From Thermoflexales bacterium (GTDB lineage: Bacteria > Chloroflexota > Anaerolineae > J036 > Brachytrichaceae), in the NCBI GenBank assembly GCA_025056965.1, contig JANWVF010000117.1, forward strand, positions 1-38,182: a stretch of 38,182 nucleotides of DNA, written 5' to 3'. A model generated the notes under the pieces. The model saw nothing but the letters and a program-made list of their open reading frames with translations, searched no databases and was not told the origin of the DNA. The translations under genes and the position numbers were made by a program. Within the stretch, counting starts at the first letter, position 1; every line of letters begins with the position of its first letter. This document shows positions 4,057-24,932 of the stretch, piece by piece.

Positions 4057-4200
4057 AGACTCTTGAAACTTGCTGCACCTGTCTGTCGTCTAGTTCATAG
4101 CGGCTTGTGCACCATGCTGCCGGTTCAGAGGCCGAACGGCAAGCGCCGATCATAACATTGCCGCGCGTCCGTGGTGCGAAGCTGTGAGCGTGGAGGAAGT

Positions 4201-5961
4201 ATGAAAGCAATTCAGCAGCATGGTCTGAGCGGATTCTTCGGCATTGTTACACGAGCGGCCGTGCGAGCGATTGCCGCCTTGCTCCTCGCGGCGTGCCAGG
4301 CCCCGTTCTTGCCGACGCCGGTCTCGCCGACGGCGACGCCTGTGCGACCGCTGCCGTTCATCACGGTGGTGCCCAAACGCGTCCTTGCCGGCGAGGCGGT
4401 GACGATCGTCGGCTCAGACTGGGATGCCGGGGAGGAGATTACGCTGGGGCTGGTCTCGACTGTGCCAAGCCCCGGCGCCGGCTCGATCGTCCTGGCCGTG
4501 ATTCGCGCCGACCCGAACGGTCGGTTTGAGTTGGCAACGACAATCCCTGCGGACACGTCGGCAGGGGTGTGGCAGATCTACGCGCAGACGCGCACAATCG
4601 GACGTTTCGCCACAGATGCCCTGACCGTGCTCGTTCCTACTTCGACGCCTGCGCCCACGCCGACAGCTGTGCCGCCGACGCATACGCCGGTGCCGACGCG
4701 GATCACGCCTACCCGTCCACCTCGGCGACCAACTTTGACACCTGTGCCCCCCACGCCGGTGCCGACAACCATCGTGCTGCCGCCCTTCACCGATTGGCGC
4801 GGAGAGTACTACGCCAACCCCAACCTAGACGGCTCACCCATCATCGTTCGCAACGATGCCGTGATTGACTTCAACTGGGGATATGGCTCGCCCGATTCGC
4901 GCGTCCCGACCGATAACTTCTCGGCGCGTTGGACGCGCATATTGGAGTTCGCGCCTGGCACCTATCGCTTCACCTTTCGCGCGGACGATGGCGTGCGGAT
5001 GTGGTTGGACAATGTGCTGGTGCTGGATAACTGGCGCGAGGGCGCGGCACGCGATGTCTCGACCGACGTAACACTCGGTCCTCGACCATACTCCTTCCGC
5101 ATCGAATATTTTGAGCGTTCTGGCGTGGCGTCCATTCGTTTTAGCATCTTCCAACTGCCGGCAGTGACCCCATCGCCGCTGCCTACTGCGACGCCGACGC
5201 CGCTGCCCCCTTCGCCTACTGCGACGCCGCTTCCACCGACGGCTATCCCGCCGACGGCGACGCCAACCCCGATTCCTACGCGCATTCCGCCGACGGCTAC
5301 ACCGACGCCGACACCGATCCCGGTGCCGACGTTGACGCCGACACCCATCCCACCCGCGACGCCGACCAGAACGCCGACGCCACGGCCTACGGACACGCCG
5401 ACGCCGCGACCTACCGACACACCAACGCCGCGGCCTGCCGACACGCCGACACCGCAGCCTACGGATACGCCGACGCCGCGGCCCACTGACACACCGACGC
5501 CGCGGCCTACCGACACGCCGACGCCACAGCCCACCGATACGCCAACGCCGCAGCCTACCGACACACCGACGCCACGGCCTACGGACACACCAACGCCACA
5601 GCCCACCGACACGCCGACGCCGACCGAGACGCCTGAGCCGACGGCTACGCCAACGGTAGCGCCGCCGACTGCGACCCCTACGCCTACGCGGCCGCTTACG
5701 GCGACGGCAGTGCTCACCGACAACGTCAATCTACGCGTGACGGGCAGCGGTTGGCCGCCCAACAGCCGCCTTTCGATCAGCCTAAGCGAATCGCCGGACG
5801 GCGATGAAGCAACATTACTCGGTCGCGTGCGCACGAATCGCAACGGCCGATTCACCTTTAGCAAGGTGTTGGACGAACCGCCGGCCGTCCCGGTCTACGT
5901 AGTGGTCGAATACAATCCTGTATTCCGGCTGGTCGTGCCGGTTGAGGTAGTAACGCCGTAG
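4201..5961 (+). CDS. Lipoprotein with PA14 domain and long Pro/Thr repeat stalk
   Basis: This 586-residue protein is predicted to be surface-anchored. Residues 1-32 are a lipoprotein signal ending in LLLAAC (lipidated C32). An N-terminal beta domain (about 45-150, [20 protein letters not shown]) is followed by a Pro/Thr linker and a PA14 domain (about 199-318) with [34 protein letters not shown] and [10 protein letters not shown]14 modules bind carbohydrate, often beside glycosidase or adhesin domains. Residues 321-500 are an extended TPTP-rich stalk, including ten octapeptide repeats. The C-terminal beta domain (501-586, [20 protein letters not shown]) resembles the N-terminal one in its G[13 protein letters not shown] pattern, so the stalk may separate two related modules. 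ATG 4201 is chosen for its GGAGGAA; an upstream in-frame GTG would spoil the signal peptide. Confidence 0.85.
5383..5622 (+). repeat. Ten tandem 24-bp units coding for (R/Q)PTDTPTP
   Basis: Ten consecutive in-frame 24-base units encode RPTDTPTP or QPTDTPTP (one has Ala for Thr). The units differ at many third codon positions while the peptide barely changes, so selection appears to act on the protein. They form the regular core of the Pro/Thr stalk of the PA14 lipoprotein; flanking sequence from 5161 to 5700 is less regular TPTP-rich coding sequence. There are no unique spacers, so this is not a CRISPR array. Confidence 0.93.
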
Positions 5962-5982: not shown

Positions 5983-7122
5983 ATGCCCAAAGTAGATTTC
6001 TCGCCGGCCAGGGATGGCTTTCAATTCGCAAACTACTTCGTCAACCAAATTGCCGATATACCCGGCATCGGCAAGTTGCAGACGGCCGGCCGGTGCGGCG
6101 GCATGTCGTATTGTGTGCTCGATCACTACTTCGCCCGCCGACCGCTGCCGAACTTCAAGCCGAGTGATTTCGGCGATGCCGGCGTGCCGCCCGATGGTCA
6201 CCCGTTGGCCGATTACATCTACCAACACCAACTGGACAGTTTCTTCACTCTGAGCGCGGTCAAGTTCGTCACGTGGACGCTTGCTCCCGACGTTGGCAAC
6301 TTCATTGTTCGCGGGGTGACAGATCGAACGAAGAAAGAGGAGTTCAAGAAGCTGCGTGAGGCGATTGATCGTGGTGTGCCTGTGCCTCTCGGCTTGATCG
6401 TTGCGCGCACCCTGAACGATCTAGGGCGCAACCATCAGGTCGTTGGCTACGGCTATGACTACGATTCCCAAACCCAGCGCATGACGGTTTACATCTACGA
6501 CGTGAACTGGCCGGGGCAGGAGATCACCCTCACGTCGGGCAAGGACGACCCCGGCTGGCTGGCGTCCGGCCCGGGCAAAGAGCAGTGGCGCGGATGGTTC
6601 GTGCAGGATTACGCGCCACGCCTTCCGCCGCCCGATTTAGCCCGACCACCGGCCAAACCGGCGCCGAAGACAATCGCGCTCACCGAACGAACTGCTCGGC
6701 CAAGAGGGCGGCGCAGTCATCTGATCGTCACGCTCAATCGCCTGGTCTTCTTCAACCCCGAAGCGCCGGATGCGTCCGCCGAGATTGCGCTTGAATTTCG
6801 CATCGCCGATCAGAAAGTGCGCTGGCCGGTGCGCGGTCTGCGCGCGGTGAAGCATGGCACGAAAGTTAAGCTCGGGCGACGGGTCGAGGTAGATGTGGCG
6901 CACGATGACGTGCTGGAGATCAGCGGTCGGGTTGCCGGCGACGTGATGTGGAGCCAAGCAGACGGCTTTGACACATTTAACTGGCTTGACCTCGACCGGG
7001 ACGCGGCCGCAGGTTTCTTCCGCCAACGTTTTACCCGCGCCGACAAATGGGGCAGAGGCGCGCATAGCGTGCGCAGCGAAGGCGAACCCTGCGGCTACAT
7101 CCTCGAATACGCGATCGAGTGA
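5983..7122 (+). CDS. Uncharacterised protein with predicted papain-like cysteine-hydrolase domain
   Basis: I do not recognise a named family. The 379-residue protein has features of a papain-like fold: AGRCGGMSYCVLDHYF with candidate nucleophile C38, then RNHQVVGYGYDYD with candidate H151, then VYIYDVNWP with candidate acid D173. The order Cys-His-Asp and the surrounding small-residue and strand patterns match C39-type and related papain-fold domains. A Pro-rich linker (about 212-230) leads to a C-terminal beta-rich domain (about 245-320). No signal peptide is visible, so it may act in the cytoplasm or leave by another route. It starts 21 bases after the PA14 lipoprotein and precedes a secreted hydrolase, so the three may be co-transcribed. 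Activity (peptidase, amidase, acyltransferase) is unknown. Confidence 0.6.
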   Translation: MPKVDFSPARDGFQFANYFVNQIADIPGIGKLQTAGRCGGMSYCVLDHYFARRPLPNFKPSDFGDAGVPPDGHPLADYIYQHQLDSFFTLSAVKFVTWTLAPDVGNFIVRGVTDRTKKEEFKKLREAIDRGVPVPLGLIVARTLNDLGRNHQVVGYGYDYDSQTQRMTVYIYDVNWPGQEITLTSGKDDPGWLASGPGKEQWRGWFVQDYAPRLPPPDLARPPAKPAPKTIALTERTARPRGRRSHLIVTLNRLVFFNPEAPDASAEIALEFRIADQKVRWPVRGLRAVKHGTKVKLGRRVEVDVAHDDVLEISGRVAGDVMWSQADGFDTFNWLDLDRDAAAGFFRQRFTRADKWGRGAHSVRSEGEPCGYILEYAIE

Positions 7123-7161
7123 TCCAGTCATGAGATGACTAACGGGCTTGGGATGGGTTAT

Positions 7162-8112
7162 ATGAGGATCATGAGACTGATCGGTGTGGGAGCAGTGCTG
7201 CTGATGGTGATGTTCGGCGGCCTGCCTGCGCGCGCGCAGCCGTCGGTCGGCAACGCGCCCTATGAATCGCTCACCATCGAGCACCTGCGCCAACGCAGCT
7301 ACGGCGCGGGCGAATTCAAGGTGGAGCGCACGCTACAAGTCACGAGTGCCTTCACGCGCTCGCTCATCAGCTTCGCCAGCGACGGGTTGACCGTCTACGG
7401 CTTCATGAACACGCCGAAGGGCAGCGGCCCATTCCCGGTGGTGATCGTGCTGCACGGCTACGTCAACCCGCGCACCTACCGCACGCCAACGACGTATACC
7501 CAGCGTTACGCCGATGCGCTGGCGCGCGCGGGCTTCCTGGTGATTCACCCGGACTATCGCGGCCACGGTCGCAGCGAAGGTGAGGCAGAAGGCAACACCA
7601 ACCTCTTCCGCACCGGATACGCGATTGACGTGCTGAACTTGATCGCGCATGCCGGCCGACTACCGAATACCGTCCCCGGGGCGATCGGACTATTCGGCCA
7701 CTCGATGGGCGGCGGCATCGCGCTGCGCGTAGCGGTGGTGAACCCGGACGTGAAGGCCGTCGTGCTCTACGGCTCCATGAGCGGCGACGAGCGCTTGAAC
7801 GTAGATCGCATCAAGCGCGTCTTTCGGGGGGTGTCGTATATGCCGGAGGACGATGTGCCGCTCGACCTGTGGGACGACATTTCGCCGATCTCTTATCTAA
7901 GCGACTTGCGAGCTGCCGTGGAGATGCACCACGGCGCGCGCGATCCACAAGTGCCACTGGCCTGGTCGCGCGATCTCCACGCGCGGCTATCGGCGCTGGG
8001 CAAGCCGGCGGCGCTCTACGAATACACCGGCGCCGGCCACATCCTGCGCGGCCGCGATTACACGGCGATGATGGAGCGCGTGACGCGCTTCTTCGGCGCG
8101 CATTTGCGCTAG
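7162..8112 (+). CDS. Secreted alpha/beta hydrolase (prolyl-oligopeptidase/dienelactone-hydrolase-like)
   Basis: The 316-residue form starting at 7162 has a classical signal peptide (MRIMRLIGVGAVLLMVMFGG, then ARAQ as cleavage site), so the mature enzyme is exported. An in-frame ATG at 7135 would put nine extra polar residues in front; a GGGATGGG lies upstream of 7162. The alpha/beta-hydrolase fold is clear: oxyanion strand VVIVLHGY, HPDYRGHGRSEG, nucleophile elbow GHSMGG (S181), acid D261 in HGARDPQVP and H293 in GAGHIL. An additional N-terminal beta region (about 35-85) precedes the hydrolase core, as in S9-type peptidases and acyl esterases. The substrate, ester or peptide, cannot be told. 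Confidence 0.85.
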   Translation: MRIMRLIGVGAVLLMVMFGGLPARAQPSVGNAPYESLTIEHLRQRSYGAGEFKVERTLQVTSAFTRSLISFASDGLTVYGFMNTPKGSGPFPVVIVLHGYVNPRTYRTPTTYTQRYADALARAGFLVIHPDYRGHGRSEGEAEGNTNLFRTGYAIDVLNLIAHAGRLPNTVPGAIGLFGHSMGGGIALRVAVVNPDVKAVVLYGSMSGDERLNVDRIKRVFRGVSYMPEDDVPLDLWDDISPISYLSDLRAAVEMHHGARDPQVPLAWSRDLHARLSALGKPAALYEYTGAGHILRGRDYTAMMERVTRFFGAHLR

Positions 8113-18922: not shown

Positions 18923-19639
<717 letters not shown>

Positions 19640-19644
19640 TTGCG

Positions 19645-19913
19645 TTACTTTAAAGTCTTAACGTGTGCGTATTCCAGGATCTTCTCGTCCGCAGTCAGGA
19701 TCGGCATGTCATGCACGCGCACCGTCGCTACGAGAACTGATCTGCAGGGTCGCGGTGAAACGGTTGCGGCAACTGTGTTGACTCGATCGCGATCTGCAGC
19801 GTGAAGTCGAGCAGGCGTGTGCCAGGAGCTTTCAATGCGGCTTCAATCCACCGCGCAACCGGCTGCGAGGGGCGAAGCCGTCCGACTTCGACTAGCGCTG
19901 ACCTCCCAGTCAT
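19645..19913 (-). pseudogene. Decayed VapC-like PIN-domain toxin
   Basis: Two adjacent frames together spell the C-terminal two-thirds of a VapC-type toxin. From 19913 the frame reads ALVEVGRLRPSQPVARWIEA, then TQLPQPFHRDPADQF, and hits TAG at 19728-19730. A shift of one base near 19731-19736 continues as LVATVRVHDMPILTADEKIL and EYAHVKTLK to TAA at 19645. HRDPADQ-x-LVATA and P-x-LTADE-x-I are hallmarks of PIN toxins of this group. The N-terminal 40-50 residues with the first catalytic Asp are missing, so the RNase is dead by two lesions. It fills the sdhA-sdhB gap together with an antitoxin remnant. A sequencing error could explain the frameshift but not the lost N-terminus. Confidence 0.8.
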
Positions 19914-20078
19914 TCACCTCCACAGCCGGCTCGAAGGGAGCTTCATGGAATGTGATGCTTCCGCGTAGTTCCTCCCAGGGGCGCTCGTCTGAAAGCGCCG
20001 GACAAGCGCGAGGAGTGCCGGCAAGTGCGCTTCCGGCACTTGCCTGATTTCGTCAAGCAGAAGCTCCTGATATGACAC
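19914..20078 (-). pseudogene. Remnant of the partner antitoxin gene
   Basis: From a GTG at 20078, three bases after the sdhA stop, 54 codons read SYQELLLDEIRQVPEAHLPA then LLALVRRFQT. The pattern E-x-x-L-D-E-I-x-x-hydrophobic-P-E-x-x-L-P-x-L-L-x-x-V-x-x-F is that of small dimerising antitoxins paired with PIN toxins. After RFQT another frame (ERPWEELRGSITFHEAPFEP) looks more natural than the one that stays open, suggesting an indel near 19985. The stop directly abuts the toxin remnant. With a dead toxin the antitoxin is no longer needed, which fits decay. Confidence 0.55.
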
Positions 20079-20081
20079 GGC

Positions 20082-21857
<1,776 letters not shown>

Positions 21858-21945
21858 AAACCAACTCCAAAATTGCGGTGATGGGTGGGAGATATAGAGT
21901 TCGTCCTCTATTATCAACCCACCGACCACCTACAGAAGTGAGAAC

Positions 21946-24033
21946 TCACCGAACCGACAACGCACGCCGTATTGTAACAATCGGCGCGCCCGGCTGCCTA
22001 GGATCGAAGTACACCGCGTTCTTCTTCTGATTGGGATCGAACAGGCTCATCTCCAGCGCGTACTCGCCCGGCGGCAAGTCGGACGGCAGCGCAAAGCGTA
22101 CCGCGCTGGCCTGCACATGGCCGGGTCGCCAGCGATGGCCCAGGATTGCCGGGGCATCGTCCACTTGGACGATCATGCGTCCGTCCGCAGCGAACAGCTT
22201 GACGAACGGCGCAAAATACCACCACCAGTGAGGCTCGGCCGGCGGCAACCCCACCCGCCAGTCATGCATCACGCTAATCATCTCGCCCGGGCGCGCTGCG
22301 GCCGGCGTTTGCAGCGCCAGCAATTGCCACCCCTCACCCAAATTAACGTCGAGTGCGCCCTCCGGGCGCAGGGCGGATTCGATCGGCAGCGAGCGATACA
22401 ACGTCAGCACGACCGGCGTCCGGTCGGTGCGCTTCTGGCCGGGGATGGTCACGGCGAAAGCCTCGGCATGGGCCGGCGCGGGCGACTCGGCCATCAGCAG
22501 GGCGCAATCGCCACCCTCGGGCCGCACTTGCCAGATGCTCGACGCGCCCTTGATGTGGATTTCCCCGGCGCGCACCGGCCGCGCCTCTCCCAACAGGCTC
22601 GCCACCCAGCGCGCATCTTCTTGCGCGTGGAGCGTGGCGCAGCTCAATGCGCGCCATTGCTCGGCTAACCGCATCTGCCACACTACTGGCAAGCTGTAGA
22701 AGCCATCGTGGTGATAAGGGAAGCGCACCGCAGCTTGTGTTTCGCCGTCGGCGTTCCACCAGGGGATGGCAACGGCGAACGCAGCGGCGAGCGACGCCAC
22801 CGCCAAGATCGCGTATCGCGCCCAGCGCAGCACATGGTGCGCGACCCAGGCCAGCAGCGCGAACGGCGCGCCGGCCAGCACGTAAGGCGCCGGCGAGGCC
22901 AGCAACAGGTAGAACACGTGCACCTTCCAATCGCGCATGACGGCATTGGCGACGAAGAACGTCGCCAGGATCGGCAGGGTAAACCAGCCGAGCATAAGGC
23001 GGCTCAGCAGCGTCTGGGCTCGGTGTGGGCGTCCTAGCGCCCGAATGAGCAGCATCCCAAGCCCAACCCACACGAGCGCGTCCACGATCGTCGCTCGCGC
23101 GTCACTCCAACGGTCACGCATGTCAAACCAGGGGGTGTCGGCCTCGACGAATGTGTTCTCGAAGTCTCGCCCGCTGGCGATGCGCAGCGCGTGATTGAGC
23201 GGGTCAAGATTCAGCGCGCCGGCGCGCGTCTCCTCGTTGAAAGCGTGTGGGTTGTTGATAACTGCCTCAAGCGAGGCGCGCGCGCTGACGACCGCGCCGA
23301 CGTAGATCAGCGCGCTCAGCAGGCAAACGGCGGCGCCGGCTATCGCAGCACGTCCCAGCGCGGCCTGCCAGCTGCGCGACCGGCGCAGGCCGAGCACCCC
23401 GATGAGCGTGGCCGCGGCGAGTTGACCGAGCAGGCCGGCGGCGACCAGGTAGGTGTGCAGACATGCCGCGGCCCAGGCGAATGCGGCGAACAAAAACCTC
23501 GGCTTATCGCGCGTCAGGCCGTTCACTGCCAGCCACAGCGTCAGTGCGCTCATCGCCTCCAGGGGGCCCTGCAGCCATGCGCCGCGCGCCACCCAAGCAG
23601 CCCACAAGCTCACGCTGGCAAGCAGTCCGGCGGCGAGCGCCGCCCACCTACCCCACAACCGTCGCGCCAGGTCGTAGGCGATGACTGCAGCCAGCGCGCC
23701 CAGCATGGCGTTCAGCGCCGTGGCGACATACGCACCGGGCTCGAGCGCCGTGAGCAGGGCGTAAAAATAGCTCGCGCCGGCCGGGTTAGGCAGGTTGATG
23801 CTGGCCAGTAGGCTGACGGCAGGGAGCTGATCCAGTCGTCCTGTGGCGATCGCCTCGCGGATGAAGAGGCCTAGACCATGTGGGTAGGCGCGGTCGTAGT
23901 TCTGACGCACATGCTCCAGCCCATGCATCCGAAAGGCGAACGCCGTCAATGCCACGCCAAGGGCAGGTAAGCACGTCTTGAGCCATTCGCTCGGCGCCAC
24001 GCGGCCTTCGCCGGCGACCGGCCTATGCTTCAC
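21946..24033 (-). CDS. GT-C-type multi-membrane protein with C-terminal beta domain, inside the sdh locus
   Basis: The 695-residue protein has about ten to twelve hydrophobic membrane segments in its first 430 residues and a soluble C-terminal half. Overall layout is that of GT39/GT83-like lipid-sugar-dependent glycosyltransferases. In place of the usual Asp-Glu in the first periplasmic loop it has QNYDRAYPHG, so catalysis is uncertain. The C-terminus (about 560-690) contains KLFAADGRMIVQVDDAP and LPSDLPPGEYALEMSLFDP, a beta-sandwich pattern that recurs in four paralogues downstream in the window. It lies 21 bases after sdhD and 88 before sdhA, so it seems transcribed with the sdh genes although unrelated to respiration. 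Confidence 0.75.
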   Translation of the reverse strand: MKHRPVAGEGRVAPSEWLKTCLPALGVALTAFAFRMHGLEHVRQNYDRAYPHGLGLFIREAIATGRLDQLPAVSLLASINLPNPAGASYFYALLTALEPGAYVATALNAMLGALAAVIAYDLARRLWGRWAALAAGLLASVSLWAAWVARGAWLQGPLEAMSALTLWLAVNGLTRDKPRFLFAAFAWAAACLHTYLVAAGLLGQLAAATLIGVLGLRRSRSWQAALGRAAIAGAAVCLLSALIYVGAVVSARASLEAVINNPHAFNEETRAGALNLDPLNHALRIASGRDFENTFVEADTPWFDMRDRWSDARATIVDALVWVGLGMLLIRALGRPHRAQTLLSRLMLGWFTLPILATFFVANAVMRDWKVHVFYLLLASPAPYVLAGAPFALLAWVAHHVLRWARYAILAVASLAAAFAVAIPWWNADGETQAAVRFPYHHDGFYSLPVVWQMRLAEQWRALSCATLHAQEDARWVASLLGEARPVRAGEIHIKGASSIWQVRPEGGDCALLMAESPAPAHAEAFAVTIPGQKRTDRTPVVLTLYRSLPIESALRPEGALDVNLGEGWQLLALQTPAAARPGEMISVMHDWRVGLPPAEPHWWWYFAPFVKLFAADGRMIVQVDDAPAILGHRWRPGHVQASAVRFALPSDLPPGEYALEMSLFDPNQKKNAVYFDPRQPGAPIVTIRRALSVR

Positions 24034-24054
24034 TTTGCGAGCGCGCGAATGCGC

Positions 24055-24516
24055 TCATCGCAGTGCAGCTTCGCCGCTGCCGGCAGCCGCGCCCATGAAC
24101 AGCGCCGCAATGCCGCCCAGCGAGATCAGCGCTGCGATGCCCACGACGACGTACATCAGCCCTTTGTACACCGCCGGGCGATGGCCAAAGTAATCGTAGG
24201 CGACTTGGCGCACGCCGTTGATGCCGTGCGCCACGGCTAGCACCAGCATCACAGCGTAGTAGGTGCGCCAGATCACTTGCTCGACCGTGACCGGCTGGCC
24301 GGTAATGCCCCAGCGCAGCTGGGTGCCGGCGAACTCAATCTCGTGCGTGCCGATGAGCACGTGTTGCATCCAAAAGTGCGATAGCGCGAGGAAGACCAAG
24401 GCCAAGCCACTGTAGCGCATGAAGAGCCACAAGCCCAGCTCGAGGCGGTTTCGGGTTTGTGGAATCGGCTGCACCTTGCGCACGGTGCGGCCGGGGGTAA
24501 CGGTTGTGGAAGCCAT
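24055..24516 (-). CDS. sdhD: Succinate dehydrogenase membrane-anchor subunit SdhD-type
   Basis: The 153-residue protein has three transmembrane helices (about 30-50, 85-107 and 117-142). Candidate heme-ligand histidines are H47 (LALSHFWMQH) in helix 1 and H97 (AVAHGINGVRQV) in helix 2. The H-G-x-N-G-x-R motif is typical of bacterial and archaeal SdhC/SdhD anchors that hold heme b and the quinone site with the iron-sulfur subunit. It begins five bases after the sdhC stop. Assignment as D rather than C rests only on order and on the neighbour's stronger SdhC motif. Confidence 0.88.
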   Translation of the reverse strand: MASTTVTPGRTVRKVQPIPQTRNRLELGLWLFMRYSGLALVFLALSHFWMQHVLIGTHEIEFAGTQLRWGITGQPVTVEQVIWRTYYAVMLVLAVAHGINGVRQVAYDYFGHRPAVYKGLMYVVVGIAALISLGGIAALFMGAAAGSGEAALR

Positions 24517-24521
24517 GGTAT

Positions 24522-24932
24522 TTACTTGATCCCGTGCGTCACGTAGTAGCTGATGGACTTGAAGGCCATGATGGCGATGGTCGGCGCGAGCAAAATCAGC
24601 GTGATGATGACCGACCAGCGCGTAGCCACTTCCTGCTTATCCCACAGAGACGGACGCAGTTCGAGGATGGCGATGCGTGTGCCGTTCACCGCGTGAAAGA
24701 TGAGGCACGCCGCCAACACAATTTCACCGACTGAGAACAGCGGCGTCTTGTATACCGCAAGCATGGCCTCGTGCAGCGGGGGGTTAAAAGACGCCATGCT
24801 CATTCCGAAGATATGCGTGCCCAAGAAAATTACGACGCCCAGACCGGTGATCCGATGCAGCAGCCACAGGATGTGACCGCTGCCTTTGTAGCGCAGCGAC
24901 TCGCGCGCCGTGGTGATAAGTGGACTCAACAT
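24522..24932 (-). CDS. sdhC: Succinate dehydrogenase cytochrome b556-type subunit
   Basis: The 136-residue protein has three membrane helices. It shows the SdhC signature SGHILWLLHRITGLG followed by the helix VVIFLGTHIFG, and FHAVNGTRIA in the second helix. H40 and H80 are candidate axial ligands; with H47 and H97 of the neighbouring anchor this gives the four histidines expected of a di-heme complex II. It is the first gene of the sdh locus; GAGG sits upstream of the ATG at 24932, and TATACT (24976-24981, minus strand) is a good -10 box giving a leader of roughly 35-40 bases. Confidence 0.92.
   Translation of the reverse strand: MLSPLITTARESLRYKGSGHILWLLHRITGLGVVIFLGTHIFGMSMASFNPPLHEAMLAVYKTPLFSVGEIVLAACLIFHAVNGTRIAILELRPSLWDKQEVATRWSVIITLILLAPTIAIMAFKSISYYVTHGIK

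What the first reader, a model, noticed from the sequence alone, without database searches (positions are those of the whole stretch)
5983..7122. Uncharacterised protein with a candidate Cys-His-Asp triad in papain-like order
Seen: CGGMSYCVLDHY (C38), NHQVVGYGYD (H151) and IYDVNWP (D173) in one 379-residue protein with an unrelated C-terminal beta domain and no signal peptide. Known: papain-fold enzymes use Cys, His and Asp/Asn in this order. Inference: a new type of peptidase, amidase or transferase, set between a PA14 lipoprotein and a secreted hydrolase in a likely operon.
Basis: partly seen in the sequence, partly recalled or inferred. Interest (0 to 1): 0.55.

Follow-up and report, generated by a model that had tools for sequence, protein, structure and literature searches.

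The report
Uncatalogued papain-like enzyme with C2-like domain
This gene from a Chloroflexota bacterium encodes a papain-type cysteine enzyme joined to a C2-like, probably membrane-binding domain, and it belongs to a widespread family that the protein-family databases searched here do not recognise, whose relatives carry lectin or lipid-binding parts instead.

Summary
Profile searches found relatives in 37 of 400 genomes of the phylum, on plasmids of haloarchaea and Proteobacteria, and in a few viral contigs. C38, H151 and D173 are invariant in all 45 aligned catalytic domains. A model of the N-terminal domain (pLDDT 80.8, pTM 0.84) puts Cys at the start of a long helix, His at the start of a strand and Asp just after the next strand, the papain arrangement. 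48 of the 50 best PDB alignments are enzymes I recall as papain-like; Z is modest (at most 8.6), and residue distances could not be measured. No Pfam or NCBIfam family passes its cut-off; Peptidase_C39_2 is closest (profile-profile probability 95%), but most of the family lacks its oxyanion glutamine. The C-terminal domain matches C2 domains (Z 10.0). Relatives replace it with aegerolysin, BP39L-type propeller or H-type lectin domains; none of 23 tested has an evident secretion signal. Best reading: a cytoplasmic papain-fold cysteine hydrolase, probably a peptidase, with exchangeable membrane- or glycan-binding modules. Activity and substrate are unknown. The operon link holds only within the genus.

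The parts
5983..7122 (+). whole gene: papain-like domain plus C2-like domain, 379 aa
   Evidence: full-length relatives at 34-77% identity in the same genus and family
5983..6636 (+). N-terminal papain-like catalytic domain, residues 1-218
   Evidence: model mdc18ab7d5dba, pLDDT 80.8, pTM 0.84; PDB alignments; occurs alone in about 217-230 aa homologues
6094..6096 (+). codon of Cys38, predicted nucleophile, first residue of helix 38-51, in motif G-x-C-G-G-M
   Evidence: 45 of 45; helix
6433..6435 (+). codon of His151, predicted base, first residue of strand 151-161, in motif N-H-Q-V
   Evidence: 45 of 45
6499..6501 (+). codon of Asp173, predicted third triad residue, just after strand 166-172, in motif Y-D-x-N-x-P
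   Evidence: 45 of 45
6121..6123 (+). codon of Asp47, near-invariant acid on the Cys helix, nine residues after C38; role unknown
   Evidence: 44 of 45
6031..6033 (+). codon of Asn17 in the G-F-x-F-x-N motif; a candidate oxyanion residue (speculative)
   Evidence: Asn in 41 of 45, gap in 3; the region has lower model confidence
6706..7119 (+). C-terminal C2-like beta-sandwich, residues 242-379
   Evidence: Foldseek: best rows are C2 domains, E 7e-4; VIA Z 10.0, rmsd 2.7, 109 residues against perforin C2 4y1s
4171..5961 (+). upstream PA14-domain lipoprotein; neighbour kept within the genus, not shown to be a partner
   Evidence: PF07691 E 3.2e-22; present in 4 of 4 same-genus loci
7135..8112 (+). 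downstream alpha/beta hydrolase with signal sequence; neighbour, partly kept
   Evidence: PF12146 E 2.3e-16; present in 3 of 4 same-genus loci

Best explanation
The protein is a cytoplasmic papain-fold (clan CA type) cysteine hydrolase, most likely a peptidase. Cys38 attacks a carbonyl and forms an acyl-enzyme, His151 is the base, and Asp173 orients His151 (N175 is close by in sequence). A C2-like domain follows, which most likely docks the enzyme on lipid membranes, in the layout of a stripped-down calpain. It is one branch of an unnamed family in which the same catalytic domain occurs alone or joined to other surface-binding modules (aegerolysin, BP39L-type propeller lectin, H-type lectin). 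The domain therefore probably acts on a target that the second module selects. Shown: conserved triad, papain-like secondary structure and fold matches, C2-like fold, module swapping. Inferred: catalysis, peptidase rather than transferase chemistry, membrane docking, substrate.
For: C38, H151, D173 invariant in 45 of 45 and 46 of 46. N-domain model pLDDT 80.8, pTM 0.84, with Cys at helix start, His at strand start, Asp after the next strand. VIA alignments: staphopain Z 8.0-8.1, SpeB 7.8-7.9, C39 peptidase domain of PCAT1 7.0, IdeS 7.0, cathepsins 6-7; 48 of 50 rows shown are enzymes I recall as papain-like. Profile-profile match to Peptidase_C39_2, probability 95.1%, E 3.4e-8, with H151 and D173 on the C39_2 His and Asp; 40 column-shuffled controls reach at most 0.8%. 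C2-like C-domain, Z 10.0. Alternative modules: aegerolysin, BP39L lectin E 2e-33, H_lectin above its cut-off. No evident signal peptide in 23 of 23 called family ORFs.
Against: Foldseek E for the N-domain is weak (best 0.027, none at 0.001 or below), and Z 8 is near the background that the tool states for models without a clear match. Distances in the triad were not measured. The local hhalign match covers the His/Asp half only, and a forced global alignment does not superpose the cysteines. The usual oxyanion Gln is present in 6 of 45 (the window's genus only, Q33) against 24 of 27 Peptidase_C39_2 domains. The C-domain matches no Pfam C2 model. No activity data exist.
Confidence: 0.72

Rival explanations
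1. A papain-fold acyltransferase, transglutaminase or amidase rather than a peptidase: the acyl-enzyme on C38 is passed to an amine or small molecule.
For: The fold also serves phytochelatin synthase (Z 6.4-6.6) and BtrH acyltransferase (weak Pfam match in 4 of 45, best E 0.11; hhalign probability 47%). The oxyanion Gln is mostly missing; PMC10318531 (passages read) says the acetyltransferase, deamidase and transglutaminase cluster almost always lacks the element with the oxyanion hole.
Against: The best family-level match is Peptidase_C39_2, and most of the best fold matches are endopeptidases (staphopain, SpeB, IdeS). No biosynthetic or acyl-carrier gene was noticed next to the gene in the window or in the loci examined (most neighbours were not annotated).
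Confidence: 0.22
2. A self-cleaving or processing peptidase for the upstream PA14 lipoprotein, in a small surface operon.
For: Tight spacing (21 and 12 bases) and conserved PA14 adjacency within the genus.
Against: No secretion signal, while both neighbours have one, so they would meet only in the cytoplasm. The hydrolase is missing in 1 of 4 same-genus loci, and neither neighbour occurs near the more distant homologues.
Confidence: 0.06
3. A catalytically dead papain-fold scaffold kept for binding.
For: The oxyanion residue is not obvious; the window alone has His at position 82, where 44 of 45 have Arg.
Against: Strict invariance of Cys, His and Asp over distant branches is what catalysis predicts.
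Confidence: 0.05

Closest known systems
Peptidase_C39_2 (Pfam PF13529)
   Same: Cys, His, Asp order; 'G-x-P' segment before a H-x-V-V-x-G-Y-D motif and a D-P/D-S-Y motif; hhalign probability 95.1%, E 3.4e-8
   Different: No member over the cut-off (14 of 45 weak, best E 0.0073; cut-off 24 bits, window 15.4). G-x-C-G-G-M replaces N-N-C-G-P. Oxyanion Gln 6 of 45 versus 24 of 27. Family-specific D47.
NCBIfam NF045837 Mplas_Cys_pep (putative mycoplasma cysteine peptidase)
   Same: Same His/Asp region; 10 of 45 members match, best E 4.7e-5
   Different: Window scores 18.4 bits against a cut-off of 45; only the second half of the domain aligns
BtrH_N (PF14399)
   Same: Weak match in the same second half (4 of 45; hhalign 47%)
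   Different: HCE/HPE motif instead of G-x-C-G-G-M; far below cut-off
Calpain and ciliary CEP76/CC2D2A layouts (papain-like or transglutaminase-like plus C2); recalled, except CEP76 domain passages read in PMC10992998
   Same: A papain-like enzyme joined to C2-type membrane-binding modules
   Different: No sequence match in the PDB searches; none of calpain's further domains; homology of the layouts untested, so likely convergent
MOA-type fungal chimerolectins (papain-like protease plus lectin; listing and passages of PMC8244254, PMC3355094)
   Same: Papain-like domain plus a lipid- or glycan-binding module; no evident secretion signal in the prokaryotic family (fungal cytoplasmic lectins)
   Different: Binding modules differ (C2-like, aegerolysin, BP39L propeller, H-type lectin instead of beta-trefoil); Cys-His spacing 113 here versus 42 in MOA (C215, H257)

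Membership tests
Papain-like cysteine peptidase superfamily (clan CA type) | Cys at the N-terminus of the central helix, His at a strand start, Asp/Asn after the next strand | tested here: met
   helix 38-51, strand 151-161, strand 166-172 then D173. Distances not measured.
Papain-like cysteine peptidase superfamily (clan CA type) | Conserved Cys-His-Asp/Asn | tested here: met
   45 of 45, 46 of 46
Papain-like cysteine peptidase superfamily (clan CA type) | Fold match to solved members | tested here: met
   48 of 50 rows, Z up to 8.1 (staphopain, 138 residues, rmsd 4.0); the first row, 9jdd (Z 8.6), was not classed. Foldseek E only 0.027, so met with modest strength.
Papain-like cysteine peptidase superfamily (clan CA type) | Oxyanion-stabilising Gln about 6 residues before Cys | tested here: inconclusive
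   Gln at -5/-6 in 6 of 45, all the window's genus (Q33); elsewhere no conserved residue there
Papain-like cysteine peptidase superfamily (clan CA type) | Peptide-bond hydrolysis | not testable with these tools
   needs enzymology
Peptidase_C39_2 (PF13529) | Score above the Pfam gathering cut-off | tested here: not met
   Window domain 15.4 bits versus 24; best of 45 members E 0.0073
Peptidase_C39_2 (PF13529) | Detectable common ancestry | tested here: met
   hhalign 95.1%, E 3.4e-8 with shuffled controls at most 0.8%, over the His/Asp half only
C39 leader peptidase (PF03412) | Fusion to an ABC transporter and removal of double-Gly leaders | tested here: not met
   No transporter domain in the protein and no such gene beside it
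C2 domain | Eight-stranded C2 beta-sandwich fold | tested here: met
   Z 10.0, 109 residues, rmsd 2.7; the visible Foldseek rows are nearly all C2 domains
C2 domain | Sequence match to a C2 profile | tested here: not met
   No C2 family among Pfam matches of the 13 C-domains at E up to 1
C2 domain | Ca-binding aspartates in the top loops | tested here: inconclusive
   Acidic loops in L011, L012 and L023, partly lost in the window (read by eye)
MOA-type chimerolectin | Beta-trefoil lectin domain | tested here: not met
   The second domain is C2-like

The most novel reading that the evidence does not exclude
This is a prokaryotic, partly virus-borne counterpart of the fungal chimerolectins: a modular family of cytoplasmically stored papain-like hydrolases whose partner domain (C2, aegerolysin, propeller lectin, H-type lectin) attaches them to foreign or damaged membranes after cell lysis or transfer. 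That would make it a conflict or defence system spanning Chloroflexota, Proteobacteria, haloarchaea and phages.
Probability: 0.2. Interest if true: 0.78.

Novelty: new variant of a known kind. Interest (0 to 1): 0.48.

Why it matters
It fills a gap: a recurring cysteine-hydrolase family in Chloroflexota, also found in archaea, Proteobacteria and viral contigs, that Pfam, NCBIfam and PHROGs searches here leave unnamed. It swaps lipid- and glycan-binding modules as toxins, calpains and chimerolectins do, and the stand-alone versions (about 217-230 aa) are small enough for direct enzymology and crystallography. If the partner domain does set the target, the family would be a natural set of addressable proteases.

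Tried and rejected
Sequence search of the PDB with the protein and with profile A1: no credible match. The C-domain profile hits on Photorhabdus propeller lectins are repeated short matches of about 25 residues, rejected as chance. LRV_FeS (6 of 45) rejected: only about 20 residues around the Cys, below cut-off. PHROGs and PADLOC: no matches. Phage records: no match. BFVD fold search: nothing at E 0.001 or below. Conserved operon: rejected outside the genus. My simple ORF caller did not list the family gene in 5 of the 20 extra loci (L073, L081, L086, L089, L091), so neighbours there are less certain. Calpain, MOA and CEP76 do not appear in the rows; this is not evidence against them. Viral-contig pattern scans gave no further full homologue (one 28-residue match only). 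A tree of the 45 domains places the window with its own family's two-domain proteins; long branches make the deeper order unsure, so I drew nothing more from it.

Rows dropped before counts: A3 leaves out identical copies (L001, L006-L008, L010, L029-L033), the truncated L046 and the IS-split L027. The 18 of 99 includes two short weak matches (L021, L022), which I regard as chance.

Literature: PMC10318531 abstract, section 4 and passages describe 106 papain-like families; I found no mention of aegerolysin or Chloroflexi there, but its supplementary tables were not read. A search for aegerolysin with papain gave 1 paper, unrelated by its title and abstract; C39-like with aegerolysin gave none; Peptidase_C39_2 with Chloroflexi gave 1 paper, on viromes by its title and abstract. 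So I found no printed description in the held library; most subscription papers are not in it.

Full report
OBSERVATION. The ORF 5983-7122 (+) encodes 379 aa. The gene lies 21 bases after a PA14 lipoprotein gene and 12 bases before an alpha/beta hydrolase gene. The genome holds one copy; named relatives are Candidatus Roseilinea and other Anaerolineae MAGs, so the window is from Chloroflexota.

RELATIVES. With the single protein, 18 of 99 related genomes match (two of these are short and probably chance, and G052 also gives a C-domain-only match). In the same genus, 5 of 8 other genomes have it. With a profile of 19 catalytic domains (A1), 37 of 400 genomes of the phylum match. Outside the phylum: plasmids of Haloferax larsenii, Paraburkholderia caribensis, Microvirga and Bradyrhizobium (4 records), Halorientalis (found with a relative as query), and four IMG/VR contigs that represent two kinds of protein. 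No match among 50,697 phage records.

TRIAD. In the alignment of 45 catalytic domains (A3), six positions are invariant: G36, C38, G40, H151, Y172, D173. D47, Q152 and N175 are conserved in 44 of 45. Cys-His spacing is 100-117 and His-Asp 20-24. An independent HMM alignment gives C, H and D in 46 of 46.

FOLD OF THE CATALYTIC DOMAIN. AlphaFold2 with 8 sequences gave pLDDT 64.5 for the whole protein, and pLDDT 80.8 with pTM 0.84 for residues 1-218 alone. Both place C38 at the start of helix 38-51, H151 at the start of strand 151-161 and D173 after strand 166-172. Foldseek finds only weak matches (best E 0.027), but they are mostly papain-like. In the VIA second look, 48 of the 50 rows shown are enzymes that I recall as papain-like (staphopains, SpeB, IdeS, cathepsins, phytochelatin synthase, the C39 domain of PCAT1, UfSP); the other two (9jdd, a type VI effector, Z 8.6, first in the list; 22oc) I could not class. 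Z values of 6-8.6 are modest, so the weight lies in the agreement of rows plus the triad. Coordinates are not released, so triad distances are unmeasured.

CLOSEST FAMILY. No family passes its cut-off. Peptidase_C39_2 is weakly matched by 14 of 45 members (best E 0.0073), and NCBIfam Mplas_Cys_pep by 10 of 45 (best E 4.7e-5). I aligned 27 Peptidase_C39_2 domains from genomes of the class (27 of the 30 read out, near-duplicates left out) and compared profiles: probability 95.1%, E 3.4e-8, with H151 and D173 on the C39_2 His and Asp. Controls: reversed alignment 0.3%, the window's own C-domain 0.2%, 40 column shuffles at most 0.8%, BtrH_N 47%. Against: only the second half aligns, and a forced global alignment does not put Cys on Cys. 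The oxyanion Gln is at -5 or -6 in 24 of 27 C39_2 domains but in 6 of 45 here, all the window's genus. The result is a sister family with a remodelled first half, not a member of C39_2.

C-TERMINAL DOMAIN. Residues 242-379 match C2 domains: perforin C2 Z 10.0 over 109 residues at 2.7 A, 3w56 9.8, Munc13 C2B 9.8, cytosolic phospholipase A2 C2 8.9; nearly all listed Foldseek rows are C2 domains. No Pfam C2 match. The same domain ends a 619-aa frame without the peptidase domain in L023. Acidic loops like those that bind calcium are seen by eye in L011, L012 and L023 and are partly lost in the window. Lipid docking is therefore inferred from fold alone.

MODULE SWAPPING. Other members carry other binding modules. 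Paraburkholderia L025 has an aegerolysin-like start (4jox, E 8e-6) and BP39L-type lectin propeller repeats (6gxr, E 2e-33). IMG/VR contigs L066 and L070 have an aegerolysin-like domain (tblastn of L066 to annotated aegerolysins; 4jox E 0.028). Haloferax L024 has H-type lectin domains above the cut-off, and L042/L085 has FG-GAP repeats. In 23 of 23 family ORFs called, no N-terminal segment reaches the hydropathy of the two secreted neighbours. So the common theme is a non-secreted papain-like enzyme plus a surface-binding module; several members (about 217-230 aa) are the enzyme alone.

CONTEXT. PA14 is adjacent in 4 of 4 same-genus loci and the hydrolase in 3 of 4. In 20 further loci no gene directly beside the homologue is shared outside close kin groups (5 of the 20 were poorly called). 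The operon is therefore a genus-level arrangement and does not explain the function.

MECHANISM. Most likely: C38 attacks, H151 is the base, D173 orients H151, and the C2-like domain holds the enzyme at a membrane. The layout resembles calpain and CEP76 (recalled; for CEP76, passages of PMC10992998), and in the wider family the fungal chimerolectin MOA (passages of PMC8244254 and PMC3355094; the listing of PMC8244254, describes MOA as an active Ca2+/Mn2+-dependent protease). Peptidase versus acyltransferase is open; about 3 to 1 for peptidase.

VERDICT. The enzyme type is known; the family appears unnamed in the libraries searched; the domain shuffling with lectin, aegerolysin and C2-like modules is the part a specialist would find new.

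Noticed in passing
window 18923-24932 (-): The succinate dehydrogenase genes (18923-19639, 20082-21929, 24055-24516, 24522-24932) are interrupted by a 695-aa membrane-protein ORF at 21946-24033. In L084, of the same class, a family homologue sits directly before such genes.
   Followed up: no
L027 1235-4984: In Bradyrhizobium sp. Ash2021 the homologue is split by an IS256-family transposase between its Cys half and its His/Asp half.
   Followed up: partly
window 6226-6228 (residue 82): The window has His82 where 44 of 45 aligned homologues have Arg.
   Followed up: no
L023 1483-3339 (-): A 619-aa frame that ends in the C2-like domain without any peptidase domain; its earlier part looks membrane-anchored (read from the sequence).
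   Followed up: no
L028 4989-5642: A stand-alone homologue lies in an IMG/VR contig next to ORFs that look like a sulfotransferase and glycosyltransferases and upstream of what looks like a terminase (read from the ORFs).
   Followed up: no
window 4171-5961: The PA14 lipoprotein has a long Thr-Pro repeat linker, probably a surface spacer.
   Followed up: no
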